Assembly: GCA_937934595.1 (NCBI GenBank)
Contig: CALGZA010000042.1
Span: 1 to 34,801 of the forward strand
Length of the DNA stretch: 34,801 bases
From: an uncultured Verrucomicrobiales bacterium
GTDB lineage: Bacteria; Verrucomicrobiota; Verrucomicrobiia; Verrucomicrobiales; Akkermansiaceae
Direction: 5' to 3'
Positions within the stretch are counted from its first letter, which is position 1. Each line of letters starts with the position of its first letter. The notes under the pieces were generated by a model, which saw only the letters and a list, made by a program, of their open reading frames with translations, was not told the DNA's origin and ran no database searches. Positions 19,740-21,081 of the stretch are shown here, piece after piece. A program made the translations under genes and the position numbers.

Positions 19740-20303
19740 ATGACAAGATGCAAATGGGTATCACATGACCCCCTCTACATATACTACCATGACCACGAAT
19801 GGGGCAACCCACTCCATAAAGACAACAAACTATTCGAAATGCTTACCCTCGAAGGAGCACAAGCAGGCCTATCATGGATCACCATCCTCAAAAAACGTAA
19901 CAACTACAACAAACTATTCCACAACTTCAATATCAATAAAGTAGCCAGTATGTCCGATTCAGAACTCCAAAAAATCCTCCTAGACCCAGGAATCATACGC
20001 AATAAACTTAAAATCTACGGAACACGAAAAAACGCCATCGCCACACTCAAAATCATCGAAGAATCAGGATCACTTGACCACTACTTCTGGAAATACGTAA
20101 ACCATAAACCCATCATAAACACATTCAAAAAACACAACCAAATACCCACCCAGACACCACTCTCAACTCAAATCAGCAAAGACCTAAAAAAACGCGGGTT
20201 CACCTTCACGGGACCCACCATCATCTACGCATTCATGCAAGCTATCGGCATGGTCAACGACCACACCACAGACTGCCACCGCCACCCCCAAAAAAACAAA
20301 TAA
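19740..20303 (+). CDS. tag: DNA-3-methyladenine glycosylase I
   Basis: Tag removes 3-methyladenine from DNA in base-excision repair. The N-terminal CKWVSHDPLYIYYHDHEWG contains the zinc-ligand Cys4 and the conserved HDxEWG, and LEGAQAGLSWITILKKR follows. The C-terminal HTTDCHRH supplies the remaining His/Cys zinc ligands. The 187-residue length is standard. It stands alone, divergent from tig and convergent with msrA, 12 nt apart with no terminator visible. The codons end strongly in C/A, as in other plus-strand genes here. Confidence 0.95.
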   Translation: MTRCKWVSHDPLYIYYHDHEWGNPLHKDNKLFEMLTLEGAQAGLSWITILKKRNNYNKLFHNFNINKVASMSDSELQKILLDPGIIRNKLKIYGTRKNAIATLKIIEESGSLDHYFWKYVNHKPIINTFKKHNQIPTQTPLSTQISKDLKKRGFTFTGPTIIYAFMQAIGMVNDHTTDCHRHPQKNK

Positions 20304-20315
20304 AAACAGCCCCCA

Positions 20316-21020
20316 CTAACGCTCCACCCGCCTACGCACCTCATTCTCTATCTCAAGCGGTAAACCATACTCACTAAGCTCAGCCAGAAACTGCACTCTA
20401 TCCTGACCCAGACCATCACCCAAATAAGCATTAACACGTGTAATCACCGTAGAATCCGCTAACTCCTTCCCATCAGAAAACAACCCATCCACCGCCGCCC
20501 TCAAGCCACCACCCACCGCATACTTCTGGTGATACTTCTCAGCATACGTGAACTCCTTCATCGGCAATACCTTAGTAGCCACCTCGTCAAGTGAAAGACC
20601 AAGATCAGACGCACGCTTCACTAACTCTCCCTCCGCAAGCACCCTCTGAACATCATCCCTATAAAACAAAGCATTCTGATACTGAACACTAGAATTATTC
20701 CTCTCACAACGATGACCATTCCAGAAATAACTCAGAAGCTCACCATAACTAATAACCTCCGGATCATAATCAACAGATATCGCCTCAGTATGATCACCCA
20801 TATCACCATAATCTGGTTTCACCTTGTCCCCACCACAGTAACCCGCACGCGTTCTTAACACACCAGCAATACTCCCAAACTGAGAGTCAGGCCCCCAAAA
20901 TCAGCCCATCCCAAACGTAACCGTCTCATAAGGCACCTCACACATCGCCTTATCAAATCCTAGACGAGCCACAGGAGCAGACTCTATCACAAGTTCCTCT
21001 TTCCCACGTAATCCAAACAT
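20316..21020 (-). CDS. msrA: Peptide methionine sulfoxide reductase A, probable selenoprotein (UGA = Sec40)
   Basis: MsrA reduces methionine-S-sulfoxide in proteins. Read through one in-frame TGA (20903-20901), the frame gives 234 residues from ATG 21020, the only in-frame ATG after a stop 11 codons upstream. The TGA falls exactly where MsrA has its catalytic cysteine: TFGMG-U-FWGPDSQFG, normally GCFWG. The rest is a normal MsrA: RTRAGYCGG, GDHTEAISVDYDP with E79, ISYGELLSYFW and the C-terminal part. The GDHTE and FWNGH style resembles insect-type MsrA. C62 and C105 could act as resolving residues. A SECIS-like hairpin follows the UGA. Without read-through a caller would start at GTG 20861 and lose the active site. 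The alternative is a point nonsense mutation at the catalytic codon. It is probably last in a run with the polyprenyl synthase and 4-TM genes; no selA, selB, selC or selD is in the window. Confidence 0.85.
20871..20903 (-). promoter_or_regulatory. Candidate bacterial SECIS element of msrA
   Basis: Directly after the UGA (20903-20901) the message folds into ACUCUC (20887-20882), loop AGUUU (20881-20877) and GGGAGU (20876-20871), a 6-bp stem with one U-G wobble. Nineteen nt lie between the UGA and the apical loop, and G is the second loop base. Both are within the loose bacterial SECIS rules for SelB binding. A weak lower stem CCUG/CUGG with a 3' bulge can extend it. Confidence 0.65.
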
Positions 21021-21081
21021 AATCGTATCAACTCTATTTAAACCAAGACATCAAAGACCCAGCTCCTTAAGAAACACTATA

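What the first reader, a model, noticed from the sequence alone, without database searches (positions are those of the whole stretch)
20316..21020. msrA appears to encode a selenoprotein: UGA at the catalytic position
The minus-strand frame from ATG 21020 to 20316 is intact except for one TGA (20903-20901), which lies exactly at the catalytic Cys of MsrA (GMG-U-FWG). Both sides are well-conserved MsrA, which is hard to explain by random decay. Selenocysteine forms of MsrA are known but rare, mainly in algae, some animals and a few bacteria. A standard caller would miss 54 N-terminal residues and the active site, so the gene would be filed as truncated.
Basis: partly seen in the sequence, partly recalled or inferred. 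Interest (0 to 1): 0.92.

Follow-up and report, generated by a model that had tools for sequence, protein, structure and literature searches.

The report
Selenocysteine MsrA in marine Verrucomicrobia
A bacterial gene that looks broken by a stop codon most likely uses that codon to insert the rare amino acid selenocysteine into a protein-repair enzyme; the enzyme type was already known, and close relatives of this bacterium share it.

Summary
The minus-strand frame 21020-20316 reads as a 234-aa MsrA with one in-frame TGA at 20903-20901, the catalytic codon (GMG-U-FWG). The selenoprotein reading is strongly supported. The window's genome has selA, selB, selD and a tRNA-Sec with anticodon UCA; its selD also carries an in-frame TGA. 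Among 58 genomes (own included), 11 have this gene, each with one TGA at this codon; all 11 have selA. Of 78 distinct homologues examined, 52 have TGA and 26 TGT/TGC; the 48-row verrucomicrobial group is all TGA. A hairpin 14-30 nt after the TGA resembles the published bacterial SECIS model and is kept by synonymous codon choice in TGA genes (mean z -2.6), not in Cys genes (-0.2). The closest solved structure is Clostridium oremlandii selenoprotein MsrA, with the same C-terminal helical domain. It is a new member of a known kind. Possibly new: 49 of 52 TGA forms, and 0 of 26 Cys forms, have a second Cys at position 62, 105 or 106, a candidate resolving residue absent from the C. oremlandii enzyme. 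Sec incorporation was not tested.

The parts
20316..21020 (-). msrA open reading frame, 234 codons with UGA read as Sec, TAG stop at 20318-20316
   Evidence: PMSR domain residues 33-168; best solved relatives are C. oremlandii MsrA entries
20901..20903 (-). in-frame TGA at the catalytic position (residue 40), predicted Sec codon
   Evidence: TGA at this codon in 52 of 78 distinct homologues examined and in all 48 rows of the verrucomicrobial group
20871..20887 (-). predicted SECIS hairpin: ACTCTC/GGGAGT (one T-G wobble) around AGTTT, +14 to +30 nt after the TGA; the minimum-energy fold also pairs the loop's A and last T (7 bp, loop GTT)
   Evidence: compared with the bacterial SECIS model quoted from PMC13188914
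20517..20924 (-). PMSR catalytic domain (residues 33-168)
   Evidence: Pfam; TIGR00401, 96.4 bits, under its cut-off of 108.1; fold
20319..20516 (-). C-terminal helical domain (residues 169-234), corresponding to residues 145-209 of C. oremlandii MsrA
   Evidence: AF2 model helices between 171 and 233; alignment to 4lwj and relatives; domain limits from PMC4333827
20706..20708 (-). codon of Cys105 in the HRC loop, candidate resolving Cys
   Evidence: aligned with Pro81 of C. oremlandii MsrA; function inferred
20835..20837 (-). codon of Cys62 in GYCGG, second candidate resolving Cys
   Evidence: aligned with Ala38 of C. oremlandii MsrA; function inferred

Best explanation
The gene encodes a selenoprotein MsrA of the C. 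oremlandii type (MsrA catalytic domain plus a C-terminal helical domain). The UGA at codon 40 is decoded as Sec by SelB and tRNA-Sec, directed by a SECIS hairpin 14-30 nt downstream inside the coding sequence. The selenolate attacks methionine-S-sulfoxide, releasing Met and leaving a selenenic acid. Shown here by sequence: frame, UGA conservation, presence of the machinery, hairpin, domain make-up. Inferred from the known family: chemistry and substrate. Inferred here and less certain: that the oxidised Sec is resolved by a Cys in one of two places of the catalytic domain (Cys105 and/or Cys62) before a thioredoxin or glutaredoxin recycles it. A Cys-MsrA in the same genome (G000:C45) presumably covers the basal function.
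For: Own genome: selB 301 bits over cut-off 242; tRNA-Sec 57.1 bits over 47, called tRNA-SeC with anticodon tca by ARAGORN; selA 510 bits over 268; selD 375 bits over 125 with one in-frame TGA in SCGG-U-ASKL. A VPGUxxT family gene (NF041383, over cut-off) also has one TGA. Among 58 genomes the UGA gene is in 11; all 11 have selA, selD and tRNA-Sec over cut-off, and 10 of 11 have selB over cut-off; 0 of the 27 genomes without a selA match have it (Fisher p 4e-4, not corrected for kinship). TGA 52, TGT 19, TGC 7 among 78 distinct homologues; 48 of 48 rows in the verrucomicrobial group are TGA (SH-aLRT 99). SECIS: synonymous-codon test mean z -2.58 (52 TGA genes) against -0.16 (26 Cys genes); Ser46 is TCY in 48 of 48 and Ser50 AGY in 46 of 48. 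The Glu/Gln switch at codon 47 is matched at codon 49 in 45 of 45 (GAG without GGG in 30, CAG with GGG in 15; 7 TGA rows with another codon 47 left out), keeping the hairpin in two registers. Fold: top PDB matches are C. oremlandii MsrA, 35% identity, TM 0.74/0.83. TGA ends 4 of 29 ORFs that I took as genes in the window, so it is an ordinary stop here too.
Against: No selenium or peptide data. Rfam's SECIS_1 finds nothing in the genome, but it found nothing in any of 14 control genomes either, so this is uninformative. The tRNA-Sec model is over its cut-off in 5 of 14 control genomes, so that cut-off alone is not specific; the anticodon call was made only for the window's genome. One of the 11 genomes (G007, a 93% complete assembly) has no selB over the cut-off. 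TIGR00401 scores under its cut-off (96.4 against 108.1 bits). A folding test on the whole 42 nt was weak (mean z -0.62 against -0.17, p 0.09); only the hairpin-specific test is strong. The hairpin alone folds at -7.1 kcal/mol, just short of the model's -7.5. The kinship-aware test of the codon 47/49 covariation had too few supported pairs to reach significance (2 of 2 agree), and the fixed-register pair counts are mixed.
Confidence: 0.96

Rival explanations
1. Pseudogene: a nonsense mutation in a redundant MsrA, the genome also having a Cys-MsrA.
For: A Cys-MsrA paralogue exists in the genome (G000:C45:7639-8073; TIGR00401 159.6 bits).
Against: The same single TGA, and no other stop inside, in the 11 orthologues, at the same codon, and TGA in 48 of 48 verrucomicrobial rows, with up to 65% identity over the protein among the nine aligned. 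Sec machinery is present.
Confidence: 0.01
2. The UGA is read as another amino acid (Trp, Cys or Gly) through a variant code or suppressor, or the protein is made from the downstream GTG start without the active site.
For: A downstream ORF of 181 aa from GTG 20861 exists.
Against: 4 of 29 window ORFs taken as genes end in TGA. The codon sits at the catalytic Cys, where the other homologues have TGT/TGC. A tRNA-Sec with anticodon UCA, selA, selB and selD are present. A SECIS-like hairpin is under synonymous constraint. A protein from 20861 lacks the catalytic residue.
Confidence: 0.02
3. Sequencing or assembly error turning TGC/TGT into TGA.
For: The window comes from a fragmented assembly (123 contigs), and reads were not available.
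Against: Ten further assemblies show the same TGA, with a SECIS-like hairpin that the Cys homologues do not keep.
Confidence: 0.005

Closest known systems
Clostridium oremlandii OhILAs selenoprotein MsrA (CoMsrA; PDB 4LWJ, 4LWK, 4LWL, 4LWM, 4U66)
   Same: Sec at the GUFWGPD catalytic site, MsrA catalytic domain plus C-terminal helical domain; best PDB match by sequence (2.4e-39) and fold. Glu55 and Tyr47 of CoMsrA align with Glu79 and Tyr71 here.
   Different: CoMsrA has only Sec and no Cys (PMC4333827). The window's protein has Cys27, Cys62 and Cys105; a Cys at 62 and/or 105 recurs in 47 of 52 TGA forms examined. Different phylum; about 35% identity.
NF041383 VPGUxxT thioredoxin-like (seleno)protein type 2
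   Same: Its C-terminal half resembles MsrA (weak match of P0001); present with a TGA in the same genome.
   Different: The Sec is in a thioredoxin-like N-terminal part, and its MsrA-like part is divergent; the window's gene is far below its cut-off (43 against 275 bits).
Conventional MsrA (TIGR00401), e.g. the G000:C45 paralogue
   Same: Same catalytic domain.
   Different: Cys at the catalytic position; 219 aa with the MsrA domain at 45-198, so no room for the C-terminal helical domain (inferred).

Membership tests
Bacterial selenoprotein | In-frame UGA aligned with a catalytic Cys of homologues | tested here: met
   TGA in 52, TGT/TGC in 26 of 78 distinct homologues examined
Bacterial selenoprotein | selA, selB, selD and tRNA-Sec in the genome | tested here: met
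[quoted passage not shown]
   Loop AGTTT (or GTT), beginning at +20 (or +21) after the UGA, stem of 6 (or 7) bp
Bacterial selenoprotein | SECIS folding energy at most -7.5 kcal/mol (same model) | tested here: inconclusive
   -10.4 for the 42 nt after UGA, -7.1 for the 24 nt with the hairpin alone
Bacterial selenoprotein | Sec incorporation in the protein | not testable with these tools
   needs 75Se labelling or mass spectrometry
MsrA (PMSR) | PMSR domain with G-C/U-F-W-G site | tested here: met
   PF01625 4.4e-33, 115 bits over 23.7
MsrA (PMSR) | TIGR00401 msrA equivalog cut-off | tested here: not met
   96.4 bits against 108.1, profile positions 1-144 of 153
CoMsrA type (two-domain Sec-MsrA) | C-terminal helical domain | tested here: met
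CoMsrA type (two-domain Sec-MsrA) | 1-Cys type: no Cys other than the catalytic residue | tested here: not met
   Cys27, Cys62, Cys105 in the window's protein
MsrA (PMSR) | Reduces methionine-S-sulfoxide | not testable with these tools
   enzyme assay needed

The most novel reading that the evidence does not exclude
Sec-MsrAs of this family are mostly not 1-Cys enzymes. [quoted passage not shown] Support: 49 of 52 TGA forms against 0 of 26 Cys forms have such a Cys (Cys105 alone 25, both 62 and 105 16, Cys62 alone 6, Cys106 2, none 3), with different positions in Verrucomicrobiota (105 and 62), Planctomycetaceae (106) and a Clostridium (62). Against: CoMsrA, a Dehalococcoidia copy and two deep verrucomicrobial copies lack it; the tree allows too few independent changes for a test; distances to the Sec were not measured, and the 104-113 loop has pLDDT under 50 in the model.
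Probability: 0.4. Interest if true: 0.55.

Novelty: new member of a known kind. Interest (0 to 1): 0.42.

Why it matters
A gene caller that treats TGA as a stop will file this enzyme as truncated and lose its active site, hiding the selenium dependence of methionine repair in these Verrucomicrobia (Rubritalea, Roseibacillus and relatives). The group gives a large, well-conserved set of Sec-MsrAs, including two named strains (Roseibacillus ishigakijimensis KCTC 12986 and R. persicicus KCTC 12988), in which recycling of Sec-MsrA and the role of a second Cys can be tested; in the papers I saw, the recycling of a bacterial Sec-MsrA was worked out for C. oremlandii only.

Tried and rejected
Rfam SECIS_1 on the genome: no hit, and none in the 14 control genomes either, so uninformative. 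Rfam and tRNA scans of the window: nothing. Minimum free energy of the 42 nt after the UGA: weak, perhaps because other pairings in the stretch dominate; replaced by the hairpin-specific synonymous test. Count of covariation with one fixed register on 40 sequences: 78% and 88% of cells paired; neither register fits all sequences, because the Glu-type and Gln-type hairpins differ by one base in register. Both exceed every slid version in percent paired and in covariation score, but not in every measure (in some slid versions more cells or pairs change on both sides). Against shuffles, the Gln-type register is reached by 0 of 500 on three of five measures, and the Glu-type is not (covariation score reached by 172 of 500). 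Kinship-aware test of Sec against companion Cys: 1 supported pair, no power. Distances from the Sec to Cys62/Cys105 could not be measured: no model coordinates were in the Python box. The AF2 model rests on an alignment of 9 rows; four of its five models have mean pLDDT 80-83, one 46.

Literature: searches for Sec-MsrA in Verrucomicrobia showed no paper on it in the listed part (1 of 1 listed; 25 of 68 listed; 15 of 3,777 listed; further searches listed 20 of 42, 15 of 28, 6 of 74 and 8 of 15). The paper (PMC3281104, passages) concerns SELO and, in the passages seen, mentions msrA only as a neighbour gene. PMC4807772 (passages) reports selenoproteins in Planctomycetes; its main text does not hold the words MsrA or methionine sulfoxide, and its supplementary table of selenoproteins was not seen. 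The library lacks most subscription journals, so absence in print is not established. PMC13188914, PMC9312934, PMC2398784, PMC12013277, PMC1088965: passages found by search terms; PMC5029168: term search without a match. PMC4333827: first of four parts read. PMC4479559: passages.

Full report
What is there. The minus-strand frame from ATG 21020 to TAG 20318-20316 encodes a 234-residue protein with one in-frame TGA at 20903-20901, codon 40, in TFGMG-U-FWGPDSQFGS. Pfam PMSR (MsrA) covers residues 33-168 at 4.4e-33. Without Sec the mechanical ORF list keeps only 181 aa from GTG 20861. The gene lies tail to tail with a methyladenine glycosylase gene (19740-20303) and downstream of a 117-aa ORF without a Pfam match and a polyprenyl synthase gene.

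Conservation. A search of 58 genomes (the window's own and 57 relatives) with the Sec-read protein gave 11 orthologues at 40-100% identity, each with exactly one stop inside, TGA, at the catalytic codon. 56 of 58 genomes have some match; no listed match other than these 11 has a stop inside. Of these 80 plus the 11, 89 hold the catalytic codon (two are cut by contig ends): 62 TGA, 20 TGT, 7 TGC; after removal of 11 identical rows 78 remain: 52 TGA, 19 TGT, 7 TGC. On the tree (79 rows, C. oremlandii MsrA added; trait columns masked; quick search, drawn with a midpoint root) 48 rows form one side of a branch with SH-aLRT 99, all TGA; those with a phylum name are Verrucomicrobiota (Rubritalea, Roseibacillus, Akkermansiaceae and others; one record, L071, is named only as a bacterium). 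The Cys forms kept are in haloarchaea, Bacillota, Atribacterota and a cyanobacterium; further TGA forms are in Planctomycetaceae, a Dehalococcoidia MAG and Clostridium sp. OS1-26. The window's nearest rows are uncultured Rubritalea, which share its genus code (contig lengths of G011, G009 and G002 equal those of three Rubritalea MAG records); the placement in or near Rubritalea is inferred.

Machinery. The own genome has selB (C45:4081-5985, 301 bits), tRNA-Sec (C43:26674-26766, 57.1 bits; ARAGORN tRNA-SeC, anticodon tca), selA (C6:54301-55653, 510 bits) and selD (C6:15481-16407, 375 bits). Its selD has an in-frame TGA in SCGG-U-ASKL, and a VPGUxxT gene has one in VPG-U-GGCQ, so UGA decoding is likely used elsewhere in this genome. 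TGA also ends 4 of 29 ORFs that I took as genes in the window. Among the 58 genomes selA is in 31, selB over cut-off in 30, selD over cut-off in 33, tRNA-Sec over cut-off in 38. Controls: over cut-off in 1, 2, 2 and 5 of 14 well-known genomes, so the tRNA-Sec cut-off is the least specific; scores near 47-50 bits are probably other tRNAs (my judgement). All 11 genomes with the UGA gene have selA, selD and tRNA-Sec over cut-off (tRNA-Sec at 54 bits or more); 10 of 11 have selB over cut-off, the exception being G007, a 93% complete assembly. 11 of 31 selA genomes and 0 of 27 others have the gene (Fisher p 4e-4, kinship ignored).

SECIS. In the window +14 to +30 nt after the TGA (20887-20871) reads ACTCTC-AGTTT-GGGAGT, a 6-bp stem (one T-G wobble) with loop AGTTT, or 7 bp with loop GTT in the minimum-energy fold. 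The published bacterial model asks for a G in the first two loop positions, a loop 16-37 nt from the UGA, a 4-16 bp stem and -7.5 kcal/mol or lower (PMC13188914, passage). Geometry and loop fit; the hairpin alone folds at -7.1 and the 42 nt at -10.4 kcal/mol. Redrawing synonymous codons 45-50 by gene and group usage, the 52 TGA genes fold better than their redraws (mean -6.1 against -1.8 kcal/mol, mean z -2.58, p at most 0.05 in 31 of 52), the 26 Cys genes do not (mean z -0.16, 2 of 26). The same test on the whole 42 nt is weak (mean z -0.62 against -0.17, p 0.09). The two serines beside the loop use opposite codon families: Ser46 TCY in 48 of 48, Ser50 AGY in 46 of 48. Where residue 47 is Glu (GAG) codon 49 is never GGG (30 of 30); where it is Gln (CAG) it is always GGG (15 of 15) (7 TGA rows with another codon 47 left out); this keeps a hairpin in two registers one base apart. 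Each of the two traits needs 6 changes on the tree, but only 2 independent pairs rest on supported branches (both agree), so kinship-corrected significance is not reached.

What it works like. The best PDB matches by sequence are the C. oremlandii MsrA entries (2.4e-39), and the AF2 model (mean pLDDT 83) matches them best by fold (E about 1e-17, TM 0.74/0.83, 35% identity) over 206 columns, which reach into the C-terminal helices. In C. oremlandii the helical domain is needed for the active site, the Sec form is 20-fold more active than the Cys form, and glutaredoxin recycles it (PMC4333827). Tyr47 and Glu55 of that enzyme, the latter its proton donor (PMC4479559), are Tyr71 and Glu79 here. 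The mechanism I commit to is Sec attack on Met-S-sulfoxide, selenenic acid, then reduction. By family knowledge this is well founded; here it is inferred.

The difference. C. oremlandii MsrA has no Cys at all. The window's protein has Cys27, Cys62 (GYCGG) and Cys105 (HRC). A Cys at 62, 105 or 106 is in 49 of 52 distinct TGA forms and 0 of 26 Cys forms; the exceptions are L011 (the same row as L094) and L095, which pair together deep in the verrucomicrobial group, and L103. The aligned C. oremlandii residues are Ala38 and Pro81; Pro81 lies seven residues before R88 of the L2 stretch R88-Q89-Y90, which moves during catalysis (PMC4479559). I propose Cys105 and/or Cys62 as resolving residues. This is a hypothesis: kinship explains much of the pattern, and no distance was measured.

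What is new. Sec-MsrA in bacteria is known; a 2026 review gives its motif as GUFWG/H (PMC13188914), and both variants, GUFWG and (in L095) GUFWH, occur here (L011 has SUFWH). The main text of that review and of five other papers holds no word beginning with Verrucomicro. The TGA form throughout the verrucomicrobial group and the companion Cys were not seen described in these searches, but only parts of the hit lists were shown (25 of 68; 15 of 3,777) and the library lacks most subscription papers. Verdict: real, well supported, a new member of a known kind.

Noticed in passing
G000:C121:6945-7559 (L161, L158:1446-2063); G007:C22:39073-39636 (L162): A 205-aa protein with no Pfam match has an in-frame TGA in VW-U-YSV; the only other match among 58 genomes at E 0.001 (G007, 31% identity) has TGA at the same place, CW-U-YSV. 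Candidate undescribed selenoprotein family.
   Followed up: partly
G000:C3:24080-24937 (L159): VPGUxxT-type gene (NF041383) with one TGA and a hairpin soon after it; its C-terminal half has a weak, sub-threshold MsrA match, so this selenoprotein seems to be a thioredoxin-like domain joined to a degenerate MsrA.
   Followed up: partly
G000:C6:15481-16407 (L157): selD itself has an in-frame TGA (SCGG-U-ASKL), as do 28 of the 33 over-cut-off selD genes among the 58 genomes; G055, G036, G051, G053 and a fragment in G012 have none.
   Followed up: partly
G007: Has UGA-msrA, selA, UGA-selD and tRNA-Sec but no selB over the cut-off: an assembly gap, or loss of selB in progress.
   Followed up: no
window 21020-21070: The window's msrA lacks the hydrophobic N-terminal segment that 34 of 52 distinct TGA rows show; an AAGGAG begins 48 bases upstream of the ATG, before a short frame that stops after five codons, as if the N-terminus had been remodelled.
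   Followed up: no
G000:C45:4075-8202 (L047): The Cys-MsrA paralogue lies near selB on the same strand, with one aldo-keto reductase gene between them.
   Followed up: no
L103 and L106: UGA MsrA homologues in a Dehalococcoidia MAG and in Clostridium sp. OS1-26, the latter with Cys62.
   Followed up: partly
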